DNA from: a virus | IMG/VR virus record: IMGVR_UViG_3300017605_000364 | Location: 1 to 51,505 of that record | Strand: one strand, 5' to 3' | DNA: 51,505 nucleotides | Shown here: one piece after another, positions 15,913 to 51,505 of the stretch | How positions within the stretch are numbered: the stretch's first letter is position 1 | How the letters are laid out: every line of letters starts with the position of its first letter | Position numbers and translations under genes: made by a program | Notes under the pieces: generated by a model | The model's input: the letters and a program-made list of their open reading frames with translations, nothing else | Database searches by the model: none | Told to the model about the DNA's origin: nothing

Positions 15913-16196
15913 GCGAGCTCGCTCCGCTCCGGCCGATCCTCGCCGACATCCTCGACGGCCTCGCCGTGACCAGATTCCAGATCAACACCATCGCAGGCGA
16001 CGAGGCAGGTTTGCGCCTCTGGCGCGGCGCCGAGACGCTGCGCTGGGCGCACGACTTCGATGAGGAGCCCAGCTACGGCGAGCGCGACGAGCTCGAGCGC
16101 CTGCGCAGTTTCGTGAGCGGCGTCGAGGACATCCTCGGCGACAAGAGCAAACATCCCGGGCGCCAACTCAAGGCCGTCGCCGAACTGCTGTCGTGA
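15909..16196 (+). CDS. Hypothetical early protein (95 aa)
   Basis: Helical, with RFQINTIAGDEAGLRLWRGA and a charged DFDEEPSYGERDELERLRSF segment. ATGA overlaps on both sides tie it to the methyltransferase gene downstream. Not recognised. Confidence 0.65.
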   Translation: MSELAPLRPILADILDGLAVTRFQINTIAGDEAGLRLWRGAETLRWAHDFDEEPSYGERDELERLRSFVSGVEDILGDKSKHPGRQLKAVAELLS

Positions 16197-17728
16197 CCGC
16201 GCCGACCCTTCTCCGCGCCGACGCGCGGGCACTGCCGTTGGCAGACGCCAGCGTCGATCTGATCGTGACGTCGCCGCCGTACTTCGCGCTGCGCTCGTAT
16301 ACCGACGGCGGCGAGCACTACGCCGCGCAGATCGGGTCCGAGGCCAGCCCGACCGACTACATAGCCGCGCTGCTCGAGTGCACCCGCGAATGGGTGCGGG
16401 TGCTCAAGCCGACCGGCTCGCTGTGGGTCAACCTCGGCGACAAGTACTCGACCGGCAACAGTGGACAGTCGGGCATGGCAGCACTGGGCGAGCGCTTCGC
16501 TGGCGGCGGCCATTCCGAGGCCAAGGCCAAGCGCGCCAGTGGTCGCGTGCAGGGCATGGCGCCGAAGTCGCTTATCGGCCTGCCCTGGCGGTATGCGATC
16601 GGCTGCGTCGACCAGCTCGGCCTGATCCTGCGCGCCGAGGTCATCTGGTCCAAGCCCAACGGGCTGCCCGAGTCGGTCACCGACCGCGTGCGCCGCTCAC
16701 ACGAGCAGTGGTTCCACTTCACCCGCTCGCCGCGGTACTTCGCTGCGGTCGACGAGATCCGCGAGGCGCACGTTTGGGGCCGCCAGATTAACCCAGCATG
16801 GTCAGAGGCTCGCGAAGCACTAGAGCGCGATCGCACGCCGACCCCCCGCGGCAACTCACTAAAGACTCTCAACCCGCTCGGCAAGCTGCCCGGCTCGGTG
16901 TGGGAGATCGCTTCGCAGCCGCTCACCGTGCCGAAGGATCTCGGCGTCGACCACTTCGCCGCGTTCCCGATGGAATGGCCGCGGCGCATCATCCTCGGCT
17001 GGTCGCCGGCCGGTATCTGCACCGCGTGCGGCGAGGGGCGGCGGCCGGTTGCAGAGCGAGATGCGATCGACCCTCGGTACCTCGAGTCCAACTCGAGGCA
17101 GGAAGCGCACGAACGGCTAGCAATCCGCGGTGTGTCGAAGTCGAGCATTCTGCGAACTGGATTGCAATCGGGGCAATCGCCAGCGACCAGGATCACCGGC
17201 TACGCCTGCGCGTGCGCCGAGCCGACCGCACCGACCCGTCCGGCGGTGGTGCTCGACCCTTTTGGCGGTACCGGCACCACGGCGCTTGTCGCCTCGACCC
17301 TCGGCCGGCGCGGCATCAGCGTCGACCTGTCCGCCGACTATCTGCGCCTAGCTCGGTGGCGCACCACCGACCCGAAACAGGTCGAGCGCGCCTCACGCCC
17401 GGCCAGGCCGCGCAGGCCTGAGCCCGAAATCATCCCACCACCGCACGAGATAGGCGAGCGCAGAATGATCTATCAATCGGTACCGTGGTGGGCGCTGTCC
17501 GGCGGCGACATGGTCTGGCTGCATGAGCAGCTGTTCCGCGTTGCGCAGCGCACCGATCCGGCCGCGCTGACCCTGCTCGACAGGCTCGATCGTCCGTACA
17601 CGATGACGGTGGCCGTGCTCGAGCTGTCCGCGCCGATGGCGACCCGCGCCGTACCGGACATCGTCGACGTCCTACCGATTCTATTCGACGCCTTCCCGAC
17701 GATGCAGATCATGGAAGATGCCTCTTGA
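16193..17728 (+). CDS. DNA methyltransferase (N4/N6 amino-MTase) with extra C-terminal domain
   Basis: 511 residues. Catalytic motif IV TSPPYFALRSY (about 23-33) precedes the AdoMet motif VLDPFGGTGTTALVASTL (about 348-365) and GISVDLSADYLRLA, the order of beta-class enzymes. Between them a zinc-knuckle-like GICTACGEG and YACACAEP. The last ~90 residues (MIYQSVPWWALSGGDMVWLH onward) are an added domain not needed by the family. Exocyclic amino methylation would protect phage DNA from restriction. GTG start overlaps the upstream gene; its TGA stop lies inside the next promoter's -35. Confidence 0.88.
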   Translation: MTAPTLLRADARALPLADASVDLIVTSPPYFALRSYTDGGEHYAAQIGSEASPTDYIAALLECTREWVRVLKPTGSLWVNLGDKYSTGNSGQSGMAALGERFAGGGHSEAKAKRASGRVQGMAPKSLIGLPWRYAIGCVDQLGLILRAEVIWSKPNGLPESVTDRVRRSHEQWFHFTRSPRYFAAVDEIREAHVWGRQINPAWSEAREALERDRTPTPRGNSLKTLNPLGKLPGSVWEIASQPLTVPKDLGVDHFAAFPMEWPRRIILGWSPAGICTACGEGRRPVAERDAIDPRYLESNSRQEAHERLAIRGVSKSSILRTGLQSGQSPATRITGYACACAEPTAPTRPAVVLDPFGGTGTTALVASTLGRRGISVDLSADYLRLARWRTTDPKQVERASRPARPRRPEPEIIPPPHEIGERRMIYQSVPWWALSGGDMVWLHEQLFRVAQRTDPAALTLLDRLDRPYTMTVAVLELSAPMATRAVPDIVDVLPILFDAFPTMQIMEDAS

Positions 17729-17759: not shown

Positions 17760-17957
17760 ATGACAGTTTCAGCGAACTACTACGGAGCAGGCAGCATCGA
17801 AGCCGATGTCGAAGCGCTGAGAATCCTCCGCACGGCCGCCATTGAGTGCCCGTCATGCGGAGTTCAACTCAATCCGGACGGATCGGTCGACAACCTACCT
17901 GACGAGCCAGCCGAGCATTACGGCGACTGCGCCGCACCGGTAGCGTCCGACAAGTGA
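17760..17957 (+). CDS. Small zinc-ribbon-like protein (65 aa)
   Basis: AAIECPSCGVQLNPDGSVDN then EHYGDCAAP: CxxC and a distal H...C give a possible metal site. Leaderless start, and its TGA overlaps the GTG of the C5-methyltransferase. Function unknown; it could assist the methyltransferase. Confidence 0.65.
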   Translation: MTVSANYYGAGSIEADVEALRILRTAAIECPSCGVQLNPDGSVDNLPDEPAEHYGDCAAPVASDK

Positions 17958-20953
17958 AGATCGGCAGTCTGTGCACCGGATACGGCGGCATCGAGATGGG
18001 GTTAGCCCTGGCCGGTGTCGCCGTTTCCGTTGCCTGGGTCGCCGAGATTGATCCCGACCTGGCCGCGCTGCATACCGCGCCGAACCTGGGCGACATCACG
18101 GCGGTCGACTGGGCAGCGATCAGATCCGGTCACGGCCCGATCGACCTGCTGACCGCCGGTTTCCCTTGCCAGCCGGTCAGCGCGGCCGGTCGCCAGCGGG
18201 GCGAAGACGATCACCGCTGGCTCTGGCCATACGTACGCGACGCCATCGCAACCCTGCGACCGCCGCAGGTGCTGCTCGAGAATGTGCGCAACCTGATCAG
18301 TATCGGTAAGGGTGCTCTCTGGGAAGGGATCCTTCACGATCTGGCCCACCTCGGTTACGACGTGCGCTGGCTCACCCTGGGCGCCTGTCATGTCGGCGCC
18401 GCGCATCATCGACACCGTGTCTTCGCCCTGGCCACGCTCGCGACCCGTGACGGCTGGCTCGGCGGCCTGCCCGCGCAACACGTGGCGACCTCGACGTGCG
18501 GCGCCAAGGCCGGCGCTGTCCTGCCGACACCGGCCGCCGTCTCGTACGGCAGCAATCAGGGCGGCGCGGCCGGTCGAGTTGGACCGGTCCGGCACTCCCT
18601 CGACTCACTCGCGCGGCTCGACCTGCTGCCGACACCCGCCGCCCGCGATGGCGACCACCGTGGCGAGGGTGACCAGCGGTACTGGTCGGCGCGCGCCGAG
18701 ACGCGCACCAACGGCATGCCGCTCGGCGCCGCCGTCGCACTGCTCCCGACGCCGCAGAGTCGAGACGGGCAAGGTCGCGGAACGCCGAGCGCCGAGACGG
18801 CCGAGGCGCGGTTCGACGCCGGTCGGCGCAACATCGACGACGCGCTCGCGCTGCTGCCGACGCCGACCAGCAGCGAGCACACGGGCGCCGGGTACGCCGC
18901 TGACGGTGGGCTGAATCTGCGCACGGCCGTCACGCTGCTGCCAACGCCACGGGCGGGTGACGCCGCGCTCGGCGCGAGCTACCACAACAACCGAGGCGAG
19001 CCCGGCGCGATCGCGAGCGCCGTACAGCCCGAGCACTGGGGTCGGTTCGCCGAGGCGGTCGCGCGGCATGAGGCGATCTACGGTCCGGCGCCCGCGCCGA
19101 CCGAGCCGAACCGCAACGGGGCGCCACGTCTGGCGCCAGCCTTCGCGGAATGGCTGATGTGCCTGCCGGCCGGCCACGTCACGGCGAGGCTCGACCGCGT
19201 GCCGGCGCTGCGCGCCATCGGTAACGGCGTCTGTCCGCCACAGGTCGCCGCCGCGTGGCGGCTGTTGACCGGCGAGCCTGTTGACGTATCACTAGGTGCA
19301 GAGGTAGGGTCGGCGACCATGACGCAGGAGCAGGCAGAGCAACCCACATCACCAACGCGCGCGGCGGATATAGCCTTCATCGCCGACCGCGCGGCAGACC
19401 AGTGCCGCGCGATCTGGGCGGCGCACGACGCAGCCGACCAGCAGACGCCTGACGCCCGACTGCACGCCGCCGGGCTGGTCGCCGCGCTGCACCGCCTCGC
19501 CGAGCTCTGGCGCGCCGAGGCCGAATGGTGGCAGGCCAGCAATCGCAAGGGTCGCGTGTCGACCGCGCAGGAACTACGCCAAAGCGCCGCGCGGCTGGCC
19601 GGCGTGGCGGTCAAGCTCGAGCAGATCGCGCAGGTCTACATGGAGTCGATCGATACGGCGATCGACAAGGTCATGAAGCTCGACCAGCCGCCGCAGGTGC
19701 GCGGCGTGCTCGGCGGCGCGGTCGAGGACTACCTGACCGGCAAGACCGACACCTATCAGCCGACCGACCTCCGCCCAGGCTGGGCGAGCGGCGACACGAT
19801 CACCGTTCCGGTCGTTCCGGCCGAGGCGCCTGAACACAAGATCGGAGACACGGTGAACGTGGCCGGCATCGACTTCACGAAGATCGGCAATGATCCGTTC
19901 GCAAAGACGCCCTACATCGAGCGCCCCGACGGCATCGCCGAGGCGCTGGATCGCGCGGTAGACACGCTGCACGGCACGACGCTCGAGGCCGACGCTCCGG
20001 CCAACCCGTTCGTCGCGCCCGGCGCGCCGTCGTCGGCTCCGGTCAAGCCGTGCAGTTGGGGCGACCTGAGCCAGATCGCCGAGCGACGCGCTGCCGTCCG
20101 CGAGCACTTCTCACATTCCGCCGTGTCCACCTATGAGTCCTGCTCACTGCAGCTGCTGCTCAGCGACGCCAGCCGCGAGGGCGCTTTGCCGCCACGGCGG
20201 CCCGCATGGTCGCTGGTGGGCGGCGGCGCGTTCCACAAGGCCATCGAGCGGATCGAGCGCGACTACCTGCTCGGCATCGTCTGGCCGCTCTCCGGCGTCG
20301 AGACGCTCTGGACCGAGGTTTTCGAGGCGGCCATTGTGGAGCAGCGCGACAGTACGCTGCTCTGGCCGGTCGAGACGTGGTATGCCGCCAACGGCGGCAA
20401 AGAGGGTTACGACTGGTGGCGCGTCGAGGGTGGCGACATGATCCGCCGCTACATCGACCACCACGACGCCCAGCGCCGCGCCGCTTTCCCCACGCTGCAC
20501 GTCAGCGAGGCAAGCGTCGCCAAGGGTGTCATGAGCGTAGTACCGGTGATCGAACTGCCGTTCACTATGGACGTCGAGGGTGTGCAATCGCAGGGTTTCA
20601 TCGATTTCGCCGTGCGCGGCGCCAGTCAGCACGACTGGGAAGAGCTGACGGTCATCGACTGGAAATCCGGCCGCCAGGAGCCGTCGGAGCATATCCAGAT
20701 GGCGGAGTACGCCTGGGCGCTGCACAAGCTGCACGGTCCGGCGCGTGGCCCGATCTGGGGTAGCTACTGGATGGCGCGAAAGGGTGAGTACACACCGCCG
20801 GTCAACCTGCTCGCGGACTATCCATGGGCGGAGGTCGCCTATCGGTTCCGCTCGGCCGCTCGAGGCTACGCCGCCGGCGTCTTCACCCCGCACGTCACCA
20901 ACCTGTGCGTCGCCTGCGGGTCGCGTGCCTCCTGCCCGGCAGGCTCGCGATGA
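17954..20953 (+). CDS. C5-cytosine methyltransferase fused in frame to a Cas4/RecB-like nuclease
   Basis: 999 residues in one open frame. Methyltransferase (1-~445): motif I SLCTGYGGIEMGL, PCQ motif GFPCQPVSAAGRQRG with the catalytic Cys, LLENVRN, HRHRVFAL, a target-recognition region with five LPTP repeats, and motif X AIGNGVCPPQVAAAWRLL. A helical middle (~456-640) follows. Nuclease (~715-999): SHSAVSTYESCSLQLLL, GFIDFAVRG and TVIDWKSGRQ (PD-(D/E)XK core), then CVACGSRASC, which with the early Cys gives a Cas4/AddB-type 4Fe-4S set. A promoter at 19281 lies between the parts, with an in-frame ATG at 19319, so a separate nuclease may also be made. Confidence 0.82.
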   Translation: MKIGSLCTGYGGIEMGLALAGVAVSVAWVAEIDPDLAALHTAPNLGDITAVDWAAIRSGHGPIDLLTAGFPCQPVSAAGRQRGEDDHRWLWPYVRDAIATLRPPQVLLENVRNLISIGKGALWEGILHDLAHLGYDVRWLTLGACHVGAAHHRHRVFALATLATRDGWLGGLPAQHVATSTCGAKAGAVLPTPAAVSYGSNQGGAAGRVGPVRHSLDSLARLDLLPTPAARDGDHRGEGDQRYWSARAETRTNGMPLGAAVALLPTPQSRDGQGRGTPSAETAEARFDAGRRNIDDALALLPTPTSSEHTGAGYAADGGLNLRTAVTLLPTPRAGDAALGASYHNNRGEPGAIASAVQPEHWGRFAEAVARHEAIYGPAPAPTEPNRNGAPRLAPAFAEWLMCLPAGHVTARLDRVPALRAIGNGVCPPQVAAAWRLLTGEPVDVSLGAEVGSATMTQEQAEQPTSPTRAADIAFIADRAADQCRAIWAAHDAADQQTPDARLHAAGLVAALHRLAELWRAEAEWWQASNRKGRVSTAQELRQSAARLAGVAVKLEQIAQVYMESIDTAIDKVMKLDQPPQVRGVLGGAVEDYLTGKTDTYQPTDLRPGWASGDTITVPVVPAEAPEHKIGDTVNVAGIDFTKIGNDPFAKTPYIERPDGIAEALDRAVDTLHGTTLEADAPANPFVAPGAPSSAPVKPCSWGDLSQIAERRAAVREHFSHSAVSTYESCSLQLLLSDASREGALPPRRPAWSLVGGGAFHKAIERIERDYLLGIVWPLSGVETLWTEVFEAAIVEQRDSTLLWPVETWYAANGGKEGYDWWRVEGGDMIRRYIDHHDAQRRAAFPTLHVSEASVAKGVMSVVPVIELPFTMDVEGVQSQGFIDFAVRGASQHDWEELTVIDWKSGRQEPSEHIQMAEYAWALHKLHGPARGPIWGSYWMARKGEYTPPVNLLADYPWAEVAYRFRSAARGYAAGVFTPHVTNLCVACGSRASCPAGSR
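19281..19310 (+). promoter_or_regulatory. Promoter with operator inside the methyltransferase-nuclease ORF
   Basis: TTGACG (19281-19286), 18 bp, TAGGGT (19305-19310), eight bases, ATG at 19319. Near-palindrome TGACGTATCA at 19282-19291. It matches the intergenic promoters of this phage and is expected to give a leaderless mRNA for the C-terminal 545 residues. Confidence 0.65.
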
Positions 20954-24822: not shown

Positions 24823-26070
24823 TCACGCCGGACTCACCGCCGTTCCGTCATCCCACACGTTGCCCGACCAGACGTTGCCCGTGCGGCCGGTGGCAAAGTC
24901 GGTGATCGGCCCGAAGGGCCCACACTGCCCGCCGGAGCCGCGCTGGTACACGTTCTCCACAAACACCTGGTTGGTGGCGTTGGTCGGGTCGTTGCTGTAC
25001 GGCTTGCCCGGGGTCGCGCCGCCGTACGAGCAGTAGGACACGGTCGGCGAGGCGAGGAGCAGGTTGCGCCGGATCGTGTTGTTCTTGATCGGCGCGAAGT
25101 CGGGGTAGCCGGTCAGATCGGCCGAGCATCCCAGCGAAGTCGCGTCGTTCACGATCGGGAAGTCACAGACGAGGACGTTGTGCGTCGCCGTGGTGCCCTG
25201 CTCTTCGCGCAGCCCGGACCCATGCTGCGCGCCCTGCAACTGCTGGCCGTGCAGCCATGAATCGGTGACGCCGCAGGTCCGGGCGCAATACATGGAGCGG
25301 TTGCCGCCGCGGACCTCGACCCTGATGGCGGTGAAATTGTGGTCGCCGATGCACAGGCACTGATCCCGCGCGCCGTTGACCACCGTCGAGTCGGTGATGG
25401 TGAACGACGCCGACGAGGTGGCCGAGTCGGTGACGTCGGTACCGTTGAGCATCGACATGCGGATGACCACGTTCGCGGCCTGAATGTCCAGCGTCGCGCA
25501 GGTCACCAGTTGGTGGTCGATGACTGTTCCGGCGGCGGTGATGGTGCACGGTCCGGTGTAGCTGGTGAGGACCGCGCCGGCGGGAACGCCGGTGTTACCG
25601 GGTCCGGGCCAGCAGCCGCCCCACGGGTCCGCTCCGCCGGGCACGTTGGTGCCAGCCACCGGGCAGCCGCCAGTCGGACTGGGTGACGGGCTGGGACTGG
25701 GTGTGGTCGGTGTCGGCGAGGGTGTCGTCGGGGTTGGCGACGGCGTATCAGTCGGGCTCGGGCTCGGGCTCGGGCTCGGCGACGGTGACGGACTGGCCGT
25801 CGGGTTGGAGACCGCCACGCAGTCAGTGAGCCAGTTCTTTGCCCTGCTCGACAGACCGGAGGTGCCGGCTGCAATGCGGGCCTTGCACCACGCGTTGAGG
25901 TCGTCTCCGGACAGCCCGGCCGGCACCGTGATGTCGACCGGCGCGGCGGACAGCGGAGTCGGCGCCGAGCCTCCGCCGCTGGCGACCAGGATGGAGAGCG
26001 TCACGACGGCGGCGATCAGCGCAAGCACCAGCGCCGTATAAATCGCATTGAACCGAGGAAAAATTCTCAT
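24823..26070 (-). CDS. Membrane-anchored beta-helix (pectate-lyase-like) protein with Ser/Thr/Pro linker
   Basis: 415 residues. N-terminal membrane segment (AIYTALVLALIAAVVTLSIL), a short folded region with CKARIAAG...LTDC, a ~50-residue SPSPTP linker (~95-145), then repeats such as TLDIQAANVVIRMSMLNGTD, SFTITDSTVVNGARDQCLCI and NNTIRRNLLLASPTVSYCSY typical of right-handed parallel beta-helices, with many cysteines. Predicted to be outside the cytoplasmic membrane of the host or on the virion. Substrate unknown. TAATG overlap with the lysin gene places it in the lysis unit; it may act on cell-surface glycan. Confidence 0.7.
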   Translation of the reverse strand: MRIFPRFNAIYTALVLALIAAVVTLSILVASGGGSAPTPLSAAPVDITVPAGLSGDDLNAWCKARIAAGTSGLSSRAKNWLTDCVAVSNPTASPSPSPSPSPSPSPTDTPSPTPTTPSPTPTTPSPSPSPSPTGGCPVAGTNVPGGADPWGGCWPGPGNTGVPAGAVLTSYTGPCTITAAGTVIDHQLVTCATLDIQAANVVIRMSMLNGTDVTDSATSSASFTITDSTVVNGARDQCLCIGDHNFTAIRVEVRGGNRSMYCARTCGVTDSWLHGQQLQGAQHGSGLREEQGTTATHNVLVCDFPIVNDATSLGCSADLTGYPDFAPIKNNTIRRNLLLASPTVSYCSYGGATPGKPYSNDPTNATNQVFVENVYQRGSGGQCGPFGPITDFATGRTGNVWSGNVWDDGTAVSPA

Positions 26071-45470: not shown

Positions 45471-46991
45471 TTAGCGAACGGCCAACTGGACGAACGCGGT
45501 GAGGGTCGCCGATGCATTGTTGCGCGGCGTGATCGGCTGCATGAGCCACGGGCGACCGTCGACGCGCTCGATGATGCGGTACGCGGTCTGGTCGTTCTGG
45601 AACTTGAAGTGCGGCGAGGACATCGCCGACATGACCTGGCGGTCGCCGATCAGGTAGTACGAGAGGTCGACGAAGTTGATGTCTCCGACCTGACCCAGTA
45701 CCGGCGTCTTCTCGGTGAAGATCACCGGCCGGCCCAGGATCGTCATGGGCGGACCAACGACGCCGTTGTTCAGCCAGATCGCCGAGCCACCGGTACCGAC
45801 GGCGAGCGCCATGAGCGCCAGCGCCGGGAACGTGTCGATGGAGGCGATCCAGACCGCCCGGCCGAGCGAGGCCGGCAACATCCGGGCGTACATCTTGACG
45901 ATGTTCTCCCAGACGATCGAGGCCGACGCCTGGCCGGTCTCCTTCGCGACGCTGACGTTGGCCAGGTTGCCGGAGTTGACGAAGCCCAGCGGCATGCCGA
46001 CGCCGTTGCCGTTGATGAAGGCGTCGTCCTCGTAGAAGCCGAGCGCCTCGGGGAAAATCTGGTCGAGGAACGCCTGGAATGACGAGATCGAGTCCGACAT
46101 GAGCTCATTCGGGACCTCGGTGTAAGCCGTAAGCTTCTTGGCGTCGAGCACGATGCGGCCGAAGCTGGCCTGTGACGCGGTGAGCGCCGCGCCCTCCTCG
46201 GTCCAGTAGCCGACGATGCCGCCGTACACCGAGCCAACGTTGGTGGTCGAGTCGATGGCCGGGAACGGTACGCGCAGGGTCTCCATCGGGATTACCCGCG
46301 CCCGCGGGCGCACGACGGAGGTTTCCAGGCTCACCCGCAGCAGCTCGGAGCGCAGCGTCTCGGGGATCAGGAATCCACCCTCGGACGGCACGGTCGAGCT
46401 GAACGCGTTGCGGATGCGCTGCAGCTTGGCCTGGCGGTCGGCGGTCGAGTTGCCGAGGTGCCAGATCGTCTGGAAATACTCGGCCGAGTTGGTGAACTCA
46501 CGGTCGAGCGCGGCGCCCATCGCCCGCGGGTTGTGCAGGCCCTGGCGCGCCTCGAGCGTGCTGCCCATCAGCGACATGTTGCCGGGCTCGCCGACGCCGC
46601 GAAGGTCAGGCCGGCGGATCGGGGCGGCGCCCTCGAGCTCGCCCGACTTGATCATCTCGGCCATGACCATCTGCACCTGCTCCTGCACCTGCGCGGCGAT
46701 GGAGAGGTCGCGGTTGTGCACGGCGCGGGCGTAGTTCTGGATGAACTCGCCGAACGCCTGCGGCTTGGCCATGAGCTTCGCCATGACGGTCGCGTCGGTG
46801 AGCATCCCCTGCAGCTCGGCCTCGCTGGTCGGGATCTTGACGTCCTCGGCCGTGTCGACCGTCGGCGGTGCCGCGCGGTTGAAGATGCGCCCGACCTCCG
46901 CCGGGTCGATGCCGGCACGCTCGAGCATGGCCAGCTGAGCACGCGACTGCGCGATCTGCCTCTGCCCTCGGGCGGTCGAATACGGATTCAC
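45471..46991 (-). CDS. Major capsid protein (HK97 fold) with N-terminal scaffold-like region
   Basis: 506 residues. N-terminal ~150 residues are helical and charged, like a delta/scaffold domain removed during maturation. HK97 core: SSTVPSEGGFLIPETLRSEL, VPFPAIDSTTNVGSVYGGIV, YWTEEGAALTASQASFGRIV, LDAKKLTAYTEVPNELMSDS, FYEDDAFINGNGVGMPLGFV and, near the end, HFKFQNDQTAYRIIERVDGR. GTG start overlaps the protease stop, with GGAGG seven bases upstream. Assembles the icosahedral shell. Confidence 0.95.
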   Translation of the reverse strand: MNPYSTARGQRQIAQSRAQLAMLERAGIDPAEVGRIFNRAAPPTVDTAEDVKIPTSEAELQGMLTDATVMAKLMAKPQAFGEFIQNYARAVHNRDLSIAAQVQEQVQMVMAEMIKSGELEGAAPIRRPDLRGVGEPGNMSLMGSTLEARQGLHNPRAMGAALDREFTNSAEYFQTIWHLGNSTADRQAKLQRIRNAFSSTVPSEGGFLIPETLRSELLRVSLETSVVRPRARVIPMETLRVPFPAIDSTTNVGSVYGGIVGYWTEEGAALTASQASFGRIVLDAKKLTAYTEVPNELMSDSISSFQAFLDQIFPEALGFYEDDAFINGNGVGMPLGFVNSGNLANVSVAKETGQASASIVWENIVKMYARMLPASLGRAVWIASIDTFPALALMALAVGTGGSAIWLNNGVVGPPMTILGRPVIFTEKTPVLGQVGDINFVDLSYYLIGDRQVMSAMSSPHFKFQNDQTAYRIIERVDGRPWLMQPITPRNNASATLTAFVQLAVR

Positions 46992-48289
46992 TGCATTGCC
47001 TCCCTAAGGGCGTTGACGAACGAAATGTGATCGATGGGCGGTGGTAGCGCCGACGCCTCCGGCGGTGGCATGACCGGCGCGGGAGGTTCCGGAGGCGTCG
47101 GCGCGTCGTTGGCCGCGAGCAACATAGCGGCGCGGAACAGATCGGGGTCTGGCGGTGGTAGCGGGCCAAGCGCGGTAATGATGCCCTCGCTGAACGCCTC
47201 GACCAGTGTTTGAGACCGGTCAGCGATCAGCGCAGCGAAGTCGACCGGCGGCGGAGTGTCCGGCGGCGCTGGCGCGTCGGCCGCGGCGGCGGCCATGCCC
47301 ACCTGAAACTCGTCGATGTCCACAGGGTTATCCACAGGTGGGGACAGCGCCGCCTTGATGGTGTCACCGATGCTCGACCAGTCGACCTGGGCCGCCGGCG
47401 CCATACCTGGCATGTCCGGCATGGTCATGTCGTCGGCCTCGTCGGGGTCCGGGCTGGGTACGCCGAGGTAGGCGGCGAGCGCCTCCTGCGCTTCGTCGAC
47501 GATGCTGTCGACCGCCGTGAACCAGCCCATAGCCTGCGACACCATCGACACGTCCGCCGTGCTGGTCGCTGCGGCCTGTGGCTTGGCGTCGACGGGCGCA
47601 GGCAATGGTGGCGGTGGGGCGGCGGCGCGGCCGGCGTGGTTGAAGATCGAAAGGTCCCAGGTCGACAGCGGCATGGCCGCGCTGTTACGCGGGCGCGGCT
47701 GGGCGACCTCGTCCGCGAGGCCGGCCTTCACCGCCTCTTTTGCGTTGTACCAAGTCTCACTTTTCATGCGCTCACGCCAGGTGTCGGCCGGCTCGCCCGT
47801 GCGCTGGGCGTAGACATCGGCGATCTGGGCGCTGACCTTGTCGAGCAGGTCGGCCGCCTTGCGCATGTCCTGCGAATTGCCGATCGCCACCATGTGACCC
47901 TCGTGGATCATCATGGTCGCGTTCGGCGCCATGATGACCTTGTCGCCGCCCATGGCAATCACGGAGGCGATGGAGGCGGCGACGCCCTCGACGTGCACGG
48001 TGACGTCCGCGGCGTGGTTGCGCAGCGCGTTGTGAATGGCCATCCCGTCATAGACCTCGCCGCCGGGCGAGTTGAGATAGACATCGATGCTCTTGCTCTT
48101 GAGAGCCTTCAGCTGCTGCACAAAGTCGCTGGCCGTAATGCCCCACATGCCGATTTCGTCGAAGATCCAGACCTCGGCGACGTCCGGCGTGGCGGCATTA
48201 GTGACGATGCGCGCCCAGTCGGCGCGGTTGGGTGGTGCGTCGGGACGCGTGCTAGCACGGTTGAACACCTGTGCGCGGCGCCGCATCAC
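46988..48289 (-). CDS. ClpP-like prohead protease
   Basis: About 433 residues. S14 domain (~15-200): VYLNSPGGEVYDGMAIHNAL, the Ser motif VEGVAASIASVIAMGGDKV, catalytic His in ATMMIHEGHMV, and acidic partner downstream (ETWYNAKEAVKAGLADEV). C-terminal ~230 residues are Pro/Ala-rich with acidic helices, possibly a scaffold. It matures capsid, portal and MuF proteins; it could also cut the RVYKRD linkers of the giant protein. GTG chosen for its GGAG seven bases upstream; ATG 48307 is possible. Confidence 0.88.
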   Translation of the reverse strand: MMRRRAQVFNRASTRPDAPPNRADWARIVTNAATPDVAEVWIFDEIGMWGITASDFVQQLKALKSKSIDVYLNSPGGEVYDGMAIHNALRNHAADVTVHVEGVAASIASVIAMGGDKVIMAPNATMMIHEGHMVAIGNSQDMRKAADLLDKVSAQIADVYAQRTGEPADTWRERMKSETWYNAKEAVKAGLADEVAQPRPRNSAAMPLSTWDLSIFNHAGRAAAPPPPLPAPVDAKPQAAATSTADVSMVSQAMGWFTAVDSIVDEAQEALAAYLGVPSPDPDEADDMTMPDMPGMAPAAQVDWSSIGDTIKAALSPPVDNPVDIDEFQVGMAAAAADAPAPPDTPPPVDFAALIADRSQTLVEAFSEGIITALGPLPPPDPDLFRAAMLLAANDAPTPPEPPAPVMPPPEASALPPPIDHISFVNALREAMQ

Positions 48290-48349
48290 CAAAGGTCTCC
48301 GCCCCATGTGAGTTGTGCTCACGTTACAGCGGCGGTGATCAGGGCGCAA

Positions 48350-48619
48350 TCAGGCAGCGGTGGCGTCGGTCGCCATGGCCCACTCAGGGAAGGGCGTAGC
48401 GGAGTCGAGCTGCTCCCACTGGATGCCGTGGTCGCCTTCGTGCGGCTGGCGGTGGTCAAAGCGGTTCCACCAGATGTCATCCGGTATGCCGCCGTCGGCG
48501 AGCGGGAACGCCGCGCACTCCTGCGTCGGCTCGGCCTCGGCGGCGTTGTCGTCGGTGCGGTCGAGCGGCGACACCCAGTGAGTGCAGTTCAGACACTGCG
48601 GCGTCGGTCGGCTGGTCAT
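48350..48619 (-). CDS. Conserved small Cys protein (89 aa)
   Basis: QCLNCTHWVSPLDRTDDNAA, ECAAFPLADGGIPDDIWWNR, FDHRQPHEGDHGIQWEQLDS. CxxC plus distal Cys and the FDHRQPxxGDxGI motif recur in actinophage head regions. ATGA overlap with the giant zincin gene. Function unknown. Confidence 0.7.
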   Translation of the reverse strand: MTSRPTPQCLNCTHWVSPLDRTDDNAAEAEPTQECAAFPLADGGIPDDIWWNRFDHRQPHEGDHGIQWEQLDSATPFPEWAMATDATAA

Positions 48620-51505
48620 GTCGTCGTCTCCCTCTCGATCAGACCAAAGACGTCTTTCGACAGCTTGGATGCCTTATCGCCGTTGTGCATCACGTCCGAG
48701 AAGGCCTCGGCCGTAAATTCGTGAACGTCTGTCGCTGCATAGTTGGAAATGCTGGTCGGCCCGGCGCCGATTCTGGCGTGAATCGTCGCGATGCGGAGTA
48801 GATCTTCATTATGTCCGACAACGACATGGCCCATCTCGTGCAACGCTACGCCGCGTGGCGTAGGAGCTGCCAGGTCGTGAGCGGTGCCGGCTGCGGCCAG
48901 GTTGGCGCGGTATCTTTCGTCCGCCATGCCAACATTGAACGAAATGCGCGAATTCGTCGAGTGCGTCGTGGTAACCGCATAGGCCGCACCGGACTCCGGA
49001 GCTGGATGCGACGAAATGTCCCCGCCACGGCCATAGGTGTCGATGACGCCCAGCGGCGCTCGAGGGAAACGCTCGGCGGCCTCGAGCACTCCGGTGGCGT
49101 GCTCTTTCGCGGTCGGAGCCGTCATGCCGGTGAAGCTGACCGACACCGGATGACCCATGGTGTCGCCCAGCGCCGTCTCGAGCGCAGATGCGACCTCGTC
49201 AGCCGTGCCGGCGGCTTTGATGGCTGCGTGGTGATCGACGCCGCCACCACCAGAGCCGAACCGCCCGCGGTCGTCGCGCTTGTAGACACGACCGTCCGGG
49301 CGCAGGTAGGTGATCGCCTTCGGGCCATACTGCGAGTCGACCTGCGACATGACCTCTTTGGCCAACGGCGCGGCGTGCGCGCCCCTCGAGACGACGTCGG
49401 CGAAGGCTTCGGCGAAGGCCTCGCCATGGTTGGTGGCGGCGTAGTAGCCGATCTGATTGACCGTGAAGTCACCCGCCGACACCTGCTCGTCCGGGCGGTA
49501 TTTGAAGCCGCGGCCGCTCTCTTTGCCGCCGGCGTCGAGCGACATCCGGTCGGCCGTGTCGCGCATGATCCGCTCTGGACCGTCCAGCTTCACTCCGCCG
49601 CCGTGCTCGTCCCGCGTCGGTGCGCCGTGCGAGTGAGCTATGGCGTGGCCGTACTCGTGAGCTCCGGTGTGCGTGTAGTCGCCCAGCGCGCCAGAGCGGC
49701 CGAACTCCGCGTGTTGTTTGTCGAGAAGGCCTTTATAGTTCGATTCGTTATAGCGTGTGCTGAATGTGATGGTGAGGTCTGCTCCCGCGCCGTGCTTCAT
49801 CTCGCCATAGGCCGTCATGTCTTCGGTGTCGATCTTCGTCAATCTGACGCCGCTGGAGAATCGCTCGGCGCCCCTAAGCACGCCCTCCATGTGCTGACGG
49901 GCGAGGTCGACGTCGAGGCCGGTCAGGTTGACCGACACGGGATGGCCGAGGCGGTCGCCGAGCTCCCGACTGGCCACGGCGCCGACCTGCTCGGCGGTCT
50001 GCGCCTCGGCCAGGCTGTGCCGTATGCCACCGCCGCCTGAGCCGAACCGCCCCCACTCGTCACGCTTGTAGACGCGGCCGGATGGGCTGAGCCAGGTCAA
50101 CGCCCTCGGCTCGGCGGCGATCTTCGCGTTGAGCGCATCCATGATCTGGTGCGACAAAGGCGAGGCATGCTCACCTTTAGTCATGACGTCGGCAAAGGCC
50201 TCGGCCGGGAGTTCGTGCATATTGCTCTGCGAGTAGAACGAAATCTCCCGTAGTGCGAACGCTCGTTGATTCTGCCGGTGCTCGCCGGCCTGCTCTTCGG
50301 TCAGCTGGCCGGGCTTACGCGGACCGACGCCGAGGCGACGCTTGCCCGGTGCGGGCGTCGGCTCTGGTACGTGCTTGTCAACGTAGGCTTTCTGCAGTCG
50401 CTGAGCTTCATACAGCGTGCCGTAGTGCTCGTGCAGCACGTGGCCAAACTCGTGAAGCGCCATTCCCTGCACGTCGCCGAACGCGAAACTGCCGCGCGCT
50501 TGCCTCATATGCAAGATCTCGTTTGCGCGCTGGGCGACCTCGCCGCGCGTGTTGAACTCAATTTCGTATTTGCCGCTGGCTGTACTGTCGGCATGCAGCG
50601 TGTGCGCCCAGGTGAAGTCGCCCTGATCGCGCTCAGCCGGAAATTCAGCGGACCGCACAGCACCGAGCGGTGCGGTCGGGAAGCGCTCGAGGCCGCGCAG
50701 CACGCCCTCGGAGTATTCACGGGCGAGCTGCGGCTCGGCGCCATGGAAGTCGAAGGGGATGTCTTTGCCAGTGATCCGCTTTGCCTCCGCAGTAGCCGCC
50801 ACGCCGACCGCTTCGGCCGTCCTGGCGGCGGCGAGCTCTGGCCGCACGCCGCCGCTACCCGACCCGAACCGCCCGCGGTCGTCGCGCTTGTAGGTGCGGT
50901 CGAGCGGGCGGAGCCAGGTGATCGCCTGCGCATCCTCTGGATAGAGAGCGGCGATCTCGTTATAGATCGCCCGCGAGACGTGCGACGCGCTCGATCCGTT
51001 GTGGACGACGTCGGCGAAGGCCTCGGCACTGAGCTCATGCTGGTTGGTGGTGGCGTACTCAGAGATCTCGCCACGGATGAAGTCGGCCGTGGTCTTGCCG
51101 CCAGGGTTGAGCTCGGCGGCGATCTTTTTGGCCGGCACCTTCGGCGGTCCCGACCCGCCGCCGACAAGCGGATGTTGCTGCTGGGTCAGAACGTGGCCGA
51201 ACTCATGCAGCGCGACGCCCTGCATGGTCGCCGCGACGAGGTGCGGCGAGTGCACGGATGACGTCGTAAAGGCATCTTCGGCCGATTGATCCAATACCTT
51301 CTGATATTTATCGGGATGAGCGGAATACTGCGCGTTGAAGTTGATTGAGCCCTTTTCGTAGCCCATGCCGCTATAGGCCATGGTCTGCGCGACGTCGGCG
51401 CCGTAGTGCATCGCCCCGGGGTTGTCGGGATCGAAATCGCTTACGGTGCTCAGCGGCGCATGCGGAAAGCGCTCGAGGCCGCGCAGCACGCCCTCGGAGT
51501 ATTCA
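48616..51505 (-). CDS. Giant zincin-array protein, C-terminal part with four metalloprotease modules (5' end off the window)
   Basis: The frame is open to the window edge (962 codons). Counting from the in-frame GTG at 51489, zinc motifs are HEFGH at 95, HEFGH at about 346, HEYGH at 611 and HEMGH at 884. Each is followed some 40-90 residues later by YA/S-T/S..E..AEAF(A/S)D. Modules are joined by RTYKRDDRGRF (198-208), RVYKRDEWGRF (472-482) and RVYKRDDRGRF (734-744), each with GSGSGG or GSGGGG. Each module opens with a helical VASxxxxxG segment and an xGVLRGxERF repeat. The internal GTG is not a likely start: it lies inside a module. Probably one gene with the left-end CDS. Enzyme activity and targets are inferred. 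Confidence 0.8.
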   Translation of the reverse strand, partial: EYSEGVLRGLERFPHAPLSTVSDFDPDNPGAMHYGADVAQTMAYSGMGYEKGSINFNAQYSAHPDKYQKVLDQSAEDAFTTSSVHSPHLVAATMQGVALHEFGHVLTQQQHPLVGGGSGPPKVPAKKIAAELNPGGKTTADFIRGEISEYATTNQHELSAEAFADVVHNGSSASHVSRAIYNEIAALYPEDAQAITWLRPLDRTYKRDDRGRFGSGSGGVRPELAAARTAEAVGVAATAEAKRITGKDIPFDFHGAEPQLAREYSEGVLRGLERFPTAPLGAVRSAEFPAERDQGDFTWAHTLHADSTASGKYEIEFNTRGEVAQRANEILHMRQARGSFAFGDVQGMALHEFGHVLHEHYGTLYEAQRLQKAYVDKHVPEPTPAPGKRRLGVGPRKPGQLTEEQAGEHRQNQRAFALREISFYSQSNMHELPAEAFADVMTKGEHASPLSHQIMDALNAKIAAEPRALTWLSPSGRVYKRDEWGRFGSGGGGIRHSLAEAQTAEQVGAVASRELGDRLGHPVSVNLTGLDVDLARQHMEGVLRGAERFSSGVRLTKIDTEDMTAYGEMKHGAGADLTITFSTRYNESNYKGLLDKQHAEFGRSGALGDYTHTGAHEYGHAIAHSHGAPTRDEHGGGVKLDGPERIMRDTADRMSLDAGGKESGRGFKYRPDEQVSAGDFTVNQIGYYAATNHGEAFAEAFADVVSRGAHAAPLAKEVMSQVDSQYGPKAITYLRPDGRVYKRDDRGRFGSGGGGVDHHAAIKAAGTADEVASALETALGDTMGHPVSVSFTGMTAPTAKEHATGVLEAAERFPRAPLGVIDTYGRGGDISSHPAPESGAAYAVTTTHSTNSRISFNVGMADERYRANLAAAGTAHDLAAPTPRGVALHEMGHVVVGHNEDLLRIATIHARIGAGPTSISNYAATDVHEFTAEAFSDVMHNGDKASKLSKDVFGLIERETTT
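51069..51505. repeat. Right-end copy of the diverged repeat shared with the left end
   Basis: Partner of the repeat at 1-437. The last 37 bases also match 50683-50719 in the neighbouring module exactly, so the right edge lies in sequence repeated at least twice locally. Confidence 0.85.

What the first reader, a model, noticed from the sequence alone, without database searches (positions are those of the whole stretch)
48616..51505. Tandem array of at least six gluzincin-like metalloproteases encoded between MuF and prohead protease
Seen: six HE(F/Y/M)GH motifs in two gene parts (919-933, 127-141, 51193-51207, 50440-50454, 49645-49659, 48826-48840). All five modules that are complete past the motif also carry a YA/S..T/S..E..AEAF(A/S)D signature. 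Known: HExxH with a distal Glu in an EFxAEAF context is a gluzincin zinc site, found in ATLF-like toxin domains and in single MuF-associated toxin domains. Inference: a repeated polyprotease packaged in the head and delivered with DNA, or a surface-exposed polyenzyme acting on host targets. I know of no described phage protein with this many zincins in series.
Basis: partly seen in the sequence, partly recalled or inferred. Interest (0 to 1): 0.88.

Follow-up and report, generated by a model that had tools for sequence, protein, structure and literature searches.

The report
Phage string of tagged metalloprotease cargo

Summary
Six HExxH motifs lie exactly where stated, in one gene cut in two by the contig ends (window 1-2046 and 48616-51504, minus strand), between a MuF-like gene and the prohead protease. 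All modules are homologous, and all visible ones keep HExxH plus Tyr-x6-Glu. A model of module F (pLDDT 93.5) resembles Pro-Pro endopeptidase and lethal factor. The count is less certain: modules B and C both map to one module of a 91%-identical, circularly permuted relative, so the true number is five or six. Tandem zincins are not new as such: published polyvalent proteins hold one to five. In relatives the same tag, in the same capsid-gene slot, precedes an ADP-ribosyltransferase, a papain-fold Gln-amidase and a GNAT. Nearly the same tag (MARxYKRDxxGRFAxGGG) stands at the N-terminus of small basic proteins in about 100 other viral loci, mostly beside capsid genes. Best explanation: a beads-on-a-string array of head-packaged polymorphic effectors, each with its own head-loading or cleavage tag. 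Packaging, processing and protease activity are inferred. A new variant of a known kind; the tag is the most interesting part.

The parts
1..2046 (-). 5' part of the array gene (682 aa to contig end): tag, domain N, tag, zincin A, tag, zincin B (cut by contig end)
48616..51504 (-). 3' part of the array gene (962 aa + stop): zincin C (cut at start), tag, D, tag, E, tag, F
688..1317 (-). zincin module A (HEFGH at 919-933)
   Evidence: HMM domain E 2e-60
1..594 (-). zincin module B, truncated (HEFGH at 127-141)
   Evidence: HMM domain E 2e-49
50938..51504 (-). zincin module C, truncated at its N-terminus (HEFGH at 51193-51207); 92% aa identical to B
50116..50853 (-). zincin module D (HEFGH at 50440-50454)
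   Evidence: HMM domain E 4e-65
49324..50037 (-). zincin module E (HEYGH at 49645-49659)
   Evidence: HMM domain E 4e-50
48622..49251 (-). zincin module F (HEMGH at 48826-48840); structure modelled
   Evidence: AF2 pLDDT 93.5; PPEP/lethal-factor fold
1969..2007 (-). tag 1 RVYKRDSDGQFSS, before domain N
1348..1386 (-). tag 2 RVYKRDDHGRFGS, before A
595..633 (-). tag 3 RVYKRDERGRFGS, before B
50860..50898 (-). tag RTYKRDDRGRFGS, before D
50038..50076 (-). tag RVYKRDEWGRFGS, before E
49252..49290 (-). tag RVYKRDDRGRFGS, before F; disordered in the tandem E-F model
1381..1971 (-). domain N: non-zincin, no family match, sits behind tag 1
3078..3806 (-). tagged GNAT-like acetyltransferase gene between portal and MuF-like gene; tag RVYKRDDHGRFGS at 3720-3758
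   Evidence: Pfam PF00583 E 0.001, just below cut-off; phrog_1249 acetyltransferase E 0.001; tag
2050..3102 (-). MuF-like head gene (weak assignment)
   Evidence: phrog_595 E 5.8e-7, a family also matched by the MuF-type gene of L126; no Pfam match
3760..5220 (-). portal protein
   Evidence: phrog_2662 E 5e-65
5537..6934 (-). terminase large subunit
   Evidence: phrog_2 E 2e-32
48350..48619 (-). small conserved 89-aa gene after the array, no family match
   Evidence: present in G001
46988..48349 (-). ClpP-like prohead protease
   Evidence: phrog_2976 head maturation protease E 2.5e-85
45471..46991 (-). major capsid protein
   Evidence: phrog_10 E 4e-45

Best explanation
The gene encodes a beads-on-a-string effector array of a (probably actinobacterial) tailed phage. 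Each bead is a PPEP/lethal-factor-fold zinc endopeptidase, or in domain N and in relatives another enzyme, preceded by the same short disordered tag R[VT]YKRDxxGRFGS-Gly-rich. The tag most likely directs each bead into the prohead, as the capsid-targeting peptides of T4 internal proteins do, and/or is the place where the chain is cut into single enzymes, most simply by the ClpP-like prohead protease encoded next to it. The diverged proteases are then injected with the DNA and cut several host proteins, for example defence or regulatory factors. Shown here: homology, catalytic signature, predicted fold, tag repetition and predicted disorder, cargo swapping in the same slot, capsid-gene linkage. 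Inferred: packaging, cutting at the tag, protease activity, host targets.
For: Modules are homologous but strongly diverged (22-38% identity) while HExxH is invariant in 50 modules and the Tyr and Glu are at least 90% conserved. Fold: the top 26 PDB hits are all PPEP-1/PPEP-3, probability 0.87-1.0, followed by lethal factor. In BFVD, phage MuF-like and minor capsid proteins match at E down to 1e-5. In the relative G001 (about 91% DNA identity) the same slot holds tag-zincin-tag-zincin-tag-Gln_amidase (PF15644, above cut-off), tag-ADP-ribosyltransferase (PF03496, above cut-off) and tag-zincin. Further tagged ARTs and zincins occur as separate genes in L001/L079, L009 and L082, so each bead carries its own tag whether fused or free. 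Tags are about 82% identical within the window, although the search pattern fixes several positions, and fall in the pLDDT<50 segments of the tandem model. A very similar tag is N-terminal (103 of 120 within 5 residues of a Met) in about 107 other loci; 79 of 108 tagged loci hold terminase, portal, MuF, scaffold or capsid homologues. In L126 the order is terminase, portal, MuF, small gene, tag gene, scaffold, capsid.
Against: No direct evidence of packaging, tag cleavage or proteolysis. No immunity gene was recognised. No integrase was found among 20 scanned ORFs, although MuF toxins are typical of temperate phages. Foldseek PDB E-values do not reach 0.001, and Pfam ATLF is below its cut-off (15.6 vs 27.4 bits). 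The tagged genes' position inside the capsid cluster is only slightly above expectation within the short fetched loci (60 of 68 vs 54.4). Homologous zincins also sit inside MuF-zincin-SAP-ART proteins, where a processing role is possible.
Confidence: 0.62

Rival explanations
1. The zincins are processing enzymes: they cut the polyprotein (and other capsid proteins) at the tags, releasing single domains before or after injection, as proposed for MPTase domains of polyvalent proteins and P1 DdrB.
For: Iyer et al. 2017 propose this for such domains (PMC5512222). Zincins sit in the middle of MuF/VG15 polyproteins with SAP and ART domains. Tags are predicted disordered and would be accessible.
Against: Most tag-bearing loci have no zincin nearby (HMM hit in 5 of 107), so the tag is not a zincin-dependent element. 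One processing enzyme would suffice; five or six copies diverged to 22-38% identity suggest different substrates. A ClpP-like prohead protease is already present.
Confidence: 0.18
2. The zincins act in the recipient but the chain stays one piece: a polyvalent protein injected whole, with the tag as a mere flexible spacer.
For: The polyvalent class includes proteins transferred unprocessed (N4 vRNAP, TraC1; PMC5512222). Gly-rich tails behind the tag look like spacers.
Against: A spacer need not keep R-x-Y-K-R-D-x-x-G-R-F. The same sequence is N-terminal in free-standing genes and would have no spacer role there.
Confidence: 0.12
3. The array is a structural or surface polymer (head decoration, binding) in which the zinc sites are vestigial or used on the cell surface.
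For: Repetition of one domain is common in surface proteins (general knowledge); the gene lies among structural genes.
Against: The catalytic residues are conserved in every module while the rest diverges. Relatives replace zincins by ART and Gln-amidase domains, which usually act on intracellular targets. No adhesion family of note matched.
Confidence: 0.05

Closest known systems
Pro-Pro endopeptidases (PPEP-1/Zmp1, PPEP-3) and the lethal-factor catalytic fold (Pfam ATLF PF07737; MEROPS M34-like)
   Same: Foldseek top hits; HExxH; catalytic Tyr and metal-ligand Glu seven residues apart (Y171/E178 in module F; the Tyr is Y178 in PPEP-1 by PDB titles; the Glu spacing in PPEP-1 is from my own knowledge).
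   Different: 12-17% identity, TM 0.35-0.53, below the Pfam cut-off; repeated in tandem with tags; phage head locus; substrate unknown.
MuF polymorphic toxins (Jamet et al. 2017, PMC5576092)
   Same: Phage head locus, exchangeable enzymatic domains; 20% of MuF toxins carry a metallopeptidase, ART is also frequent.
   Different: Effectors are on separate genes, not C-terminal to MuF, many per gene, each with its own tag; temperate lifestyle and immunity gene not found.
Polyvalent proteins with zincin-like MPTase domains (Iyer et al. 2017, PMC5512222)
   Same: Large virion-linked multidomain proteins with one to five MPTase domains, ART and GNAT domains; fold linked there to lethal factor.
   Different: Classic examples combine unlike domains in one chain; here five or six copies of one domain form a homotypic array, with a conserved tag before each.
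T4 internal proteins and Alt with capsid-targeting sequence cut by the prohead protease gp21
   Same: Short N-terminal peptide shared by otherwise unrelated head cargo, including an ART (analogy, from general knowledge).
   Different: No sequence similarity tested or claimed; here the peptide also recurs inside a fused chain; targeting and cleavage unproven.

Membership tests
PPEP/lethal-factor-fold zincins | HExxH zinc motif | tested here: met
   All six window modules; invariant in 50 modules
PPEP/lethal-factor-fold zincins | Distal Glu ligand and catalytic Tyr seven residues before it | tested here: met
   Y-x6-E in all five modules complete past HExxH; Y171, E178 at least 90% conserved in 50
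PPEP/lethal-factor-fold zincins | Three-dimensional fold | tested here: met
   Model pLDDT 93.5; PPEP and lethal factor are the only high-probability PDB matches, though E is 0.0055 at best
PPEP/lethal-factor-fold zincins | Zinc-dependent peptide cleavage | not testable with these tools
   needs assay
Pfam ATLF (PF07737) | Gathering score | tested here: not met
   15.6 bits vs 27.4; described by fold and active-site signature, not filed as a member of this Pfam family
MuF polymorphic toxins | MuF domain fused N-terminal to the toxin domain | tested here: not met
   MuF-like gene 2050-3102 is separate; relatives of the zincin are fused to MuF in L021, L022, L027
MuF polymorphic toxins | Exchangeable toxin domains at one locus | tested here: met
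   G001 has Gln_amidase and ART in the same slot
MuF polymorphic toxins | Temperate phage / cognate immunity gene | tested here: inconclusive
   No integrase among 20 scanned ORFs; no immunity family recognised
Polyvalent proteins | Several different functional domains in one chain, encoded with virion genes | tested here: met
   G001: two zincins plus Gln_amidase in one ORF; the window gene has zincins plus domain N
Polyvalent proteins | Transfer into the recipient with the DNA | not testable with these tools
   needs virion proteomics or injection assay
Capsid-targeting-sequence cargo (T4 type) | Shared N-terminal peptide on unrelated head cargo | tested here: inconclusive
   Tag is shared by zincin, ART, Gln_amidase, GNAT and small basic proteins; that these are head cargo is inferred from gene position only
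Capsid-targeting-sequence cargo (T4 type) | Peptide needed for head entry and removed by the prohead protease | not testable with these tools
   needs experiment

The most novel reading that the evidence does not exclude
R[TV]YKRDxxGRF-(G/A)-Gly-rich is an undescribed head-loading (and possibly cleavage) tag shared by several tailed-phage lineages and by many unrelated cargo proteins. In the window phage it has been multiplied so that one polyprotein yields five or six independently loaded, diverged proteases together with other effectors.
Probability: 0.4. Interest if true: 0.8.

Novelty: new variant of a known kind. Interest (0 to 1): 0.62.

Why it matters
If the tag is a head-loading or cleavage signal, it gives a sequence handle for finding phage-delivered enzymes across metagenomes and a transferable peptide for studying how protein cargo enters phage heads. 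The array shows that a phage may deliver a battery of diverged proteases at once, which makes their bacterial targets, perhaps defence proteins, directly searchable.

Tried and rejected
tblastn of the array and of two tagged basic proteins against named phages: no hits. Streptomyces phage Dagobah, nearest named portal, has no gene between portal and Clp protease, so the cargo slot is empty there. A literature search for the tag letters gave nothing relevant. Short-peptide tblastn hits in Microcystis phages lie in SelO/YdiU genes and were judged chance; Nocardia phage P3.1 is a plausible real tag. A zincin search in bacterial genomes gave only five distant loci, so no host follows from it. A position test of tagged genes within capsid clusters was weak because the loci are short. 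Rfam and tRNA scans were empty. Domain N could not be assigned. The idea that tags are zincin cleavage sites was set back because most tagged loci lack a zincin.

Full report
OBSERVATION. The window is a whole IMG/VR virus record of 51,505 bases. On the minus strand one gene is cut by the contig ends: 682 codons at 1-2046 and 962 codons plus stop at 48616-51504. Modules are homologous: pairwise BLASTP E down to about 1e-29 at 22-38% identity, B-C at 92%; HMM domain E of 2e-49 or better for each.

HOW MANY MODULES. B is cut by the left end and C by the right end. They overlap over 434 bp at about 88-90% DNA identity, with 117 bp exact at the left end. The relative G001 (IMGVR_UViG_3300014325_000005, 49,368 bp) is about 91% identical and circularly permuted: the window reads through G001's ends at about 24937-25056, and both window ends fall on one single G001 module. 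So the contig is close to a full genome and breaks in the array. Either B and C are two strain forms of one module (five zincins) or a recent duplicate (six or more). The C end shares 39 bp with D, which fits recombination between modules or a chimeric contig end. I leave this open.

CONTEXT. Order on the minus strand: terminase 5537-6934, portal 3760-5220, tagged GNAT-like gene 3078-3806, MuF-like gene 2050-3102, the array, a small gene, ClpP-like prohead protease 46988-48349, major capsid protein 45471-46991. The MuF-like assignment is weak (phrog_595, E 5.8e-7; no Pfam match). The host is not known; the nearest named portal is from a Streptomyces phage, and a DUF2637 match also fits actinobacteria, so 'actinobacterial' is a guess.

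FOLD. A model of module F with 50 relatives has pLDDT 93.5 and pTM 0.92. The only high-probability PDB matches are PPEP-1, PPEP-3 and lethal factor (best E 0.0055, TM 0.35-0.53). Viral matches are phage MuF-like and minor capsid proteins and solo proteins named lethal factor. Pfam ATLF is below its cut-off. HExxH lies on the helix 132-145; E178 lies in the helix 176-193, with Y171 in the loop before it. This is the arrangement of this fold, but I had no coordinates to measure the metal site.

THE TAG. Each module whose start is visible, domain N and the GNAT-like gene are preceded by R[VT]YKRDxxG(R/Q)F(G/S)S and a Gly-rich stretch. Within the window the tags are about 82% identical, though the search pattern fixes Y, R, D, G and F. 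In a model of two modules in tandem the two tag regions (residues 1-18 and 255-282) have pLDDT below 50 (only 10 sequences, pTM 0.50).

CARGO SWAPPING. In G001 the same slot encodes tag-zincin-tag-zincin-tag-Gln_amidase (PF15644, 25.5 vs cut-off 24.1), then a gene with tag-ADP-ribosyltransferase (PF03496, 39.8 vs 23.4), then tag-zincin. L001 has four tagged zincins and a tagged ART, L009 at least two zincins and two ARTs, L023 five tagged zincins, L082 a zincin and an ART. The beads occur both fused and as separate genes, each with its own tag. The bead, not the gene, is therefore the unit. This is the strongest evidence that the zincins are effectors and that the tag does something.

THE TAG ELSEWHERE. 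120 in-frame tags in 107 loci were examined; 103 lie within five residues of a Met, which the pattern did not require. Most start MAR[TSN]YKRD and continue into small, basic, Gly-rich proteins. 79 of 108 tagged loci contain homologues of terminase, portal, MuF, scaffold or capsid genes, and all 68 tags in loci with two or more such genes are on the same strand. In L126 the order is terminase, portal, MuF-type, small gene, tag gene, scaffold, capsid, the same slot as here. Nocardia phage P3.1 has two such genes (MARNYKRDGKGRFAK) between portal and capsid maturation protease. In L154 the tag sits behind a portal domain, before a short C-terminal region. Only 5 of 107 tagged loci have a zincin match, so the tag does not depend on zincins. 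In another lineage, a Flexilinea MAG (L085), five zincin genes stand in a row upstream of a terminase-like gene (my reading of the sequence), and three share a different N-terminal peptide, MGGGRxxxGxxIYRRVxGxYxR.

KNOWN WORK. Iyer et al. 2017 (PMC5512222) describe polyvalent proteins, 36% with one to five zincin-like MPTase domains related to lethal factor, and suggest processing or effector roles. Jamet et al. 2017 (PMC5576092) describe MuF toxins, 20% with a metallopeptidase domain. So phage-delivered zincins and multiple zincins are known. I found no report of this tag in the held library, nor of a homotypic array of five or six; both statements are limited to what I searched.

MECHANISM AND CONFIDENCE. 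I hold most likely (0.62) that the beads are head-packaged effectors loaded, and probably separated, through the tag. Rivals: zincins as processing enzymes (0.18), an uncut polyvalent protein with spacers (0.12), structural or surface polymer (0.05). Packaging, cutting and activity are not shown.

VERDICT. Real and well preserved; a new variant of phage polymorphic/polyvalent effectors.

Noticed in passing
L089-L198 (e.g. L126:9235-9735, L155, L162): N-terminal tag MARxYKRDxxGRF(A/S)xGGG on small basic Gly-rich proteins in over 100 viral loci, sometimes two such genes in a row, mostly by capsid genes; no family match for the one scanned (L126).
   Followed up: partly
L085:7221-14152: Five zincin genes in a row upstream of a terminase-like gene in a Flexilinea MAG; three share another N-terminal peptide, MGGGRxxxGxxIYRRVxGxYxR.
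   Followed up: partly
L036:15430-15700 and L079:1749-2180: Short domains before a tag (MITFEDARQVV..., MDFDAARGVV...) that look to me like small immunity-type proteins fused ahead of the effector; Pfam gave no match.
   Followed up: no
window 17954-20953: 999-aa ORF with a C5-cytosine methylase at its start and a PD-(D/E)XK nuclease at its end.
   Followed up: no
window 16193-17728: N6/N4 DNA methylase with two matched stretches in one ORF.
   Followed up: no
window 1381-1971: Domain N behind the first tag seems to hold two diverged copies of a roughly 80-residue unit; no family match.
   Followed up: no
window 24937-25056: The window reads continuously across the two ends of G001, so that record looks like a circularly permuted genome although it is not classed as having end repeats.
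   Followed up: yes
L084:3-10502: Nocardia abscessus contig with a single 3500-aa open frame holding three distant zincin modules.
   Followed up: no
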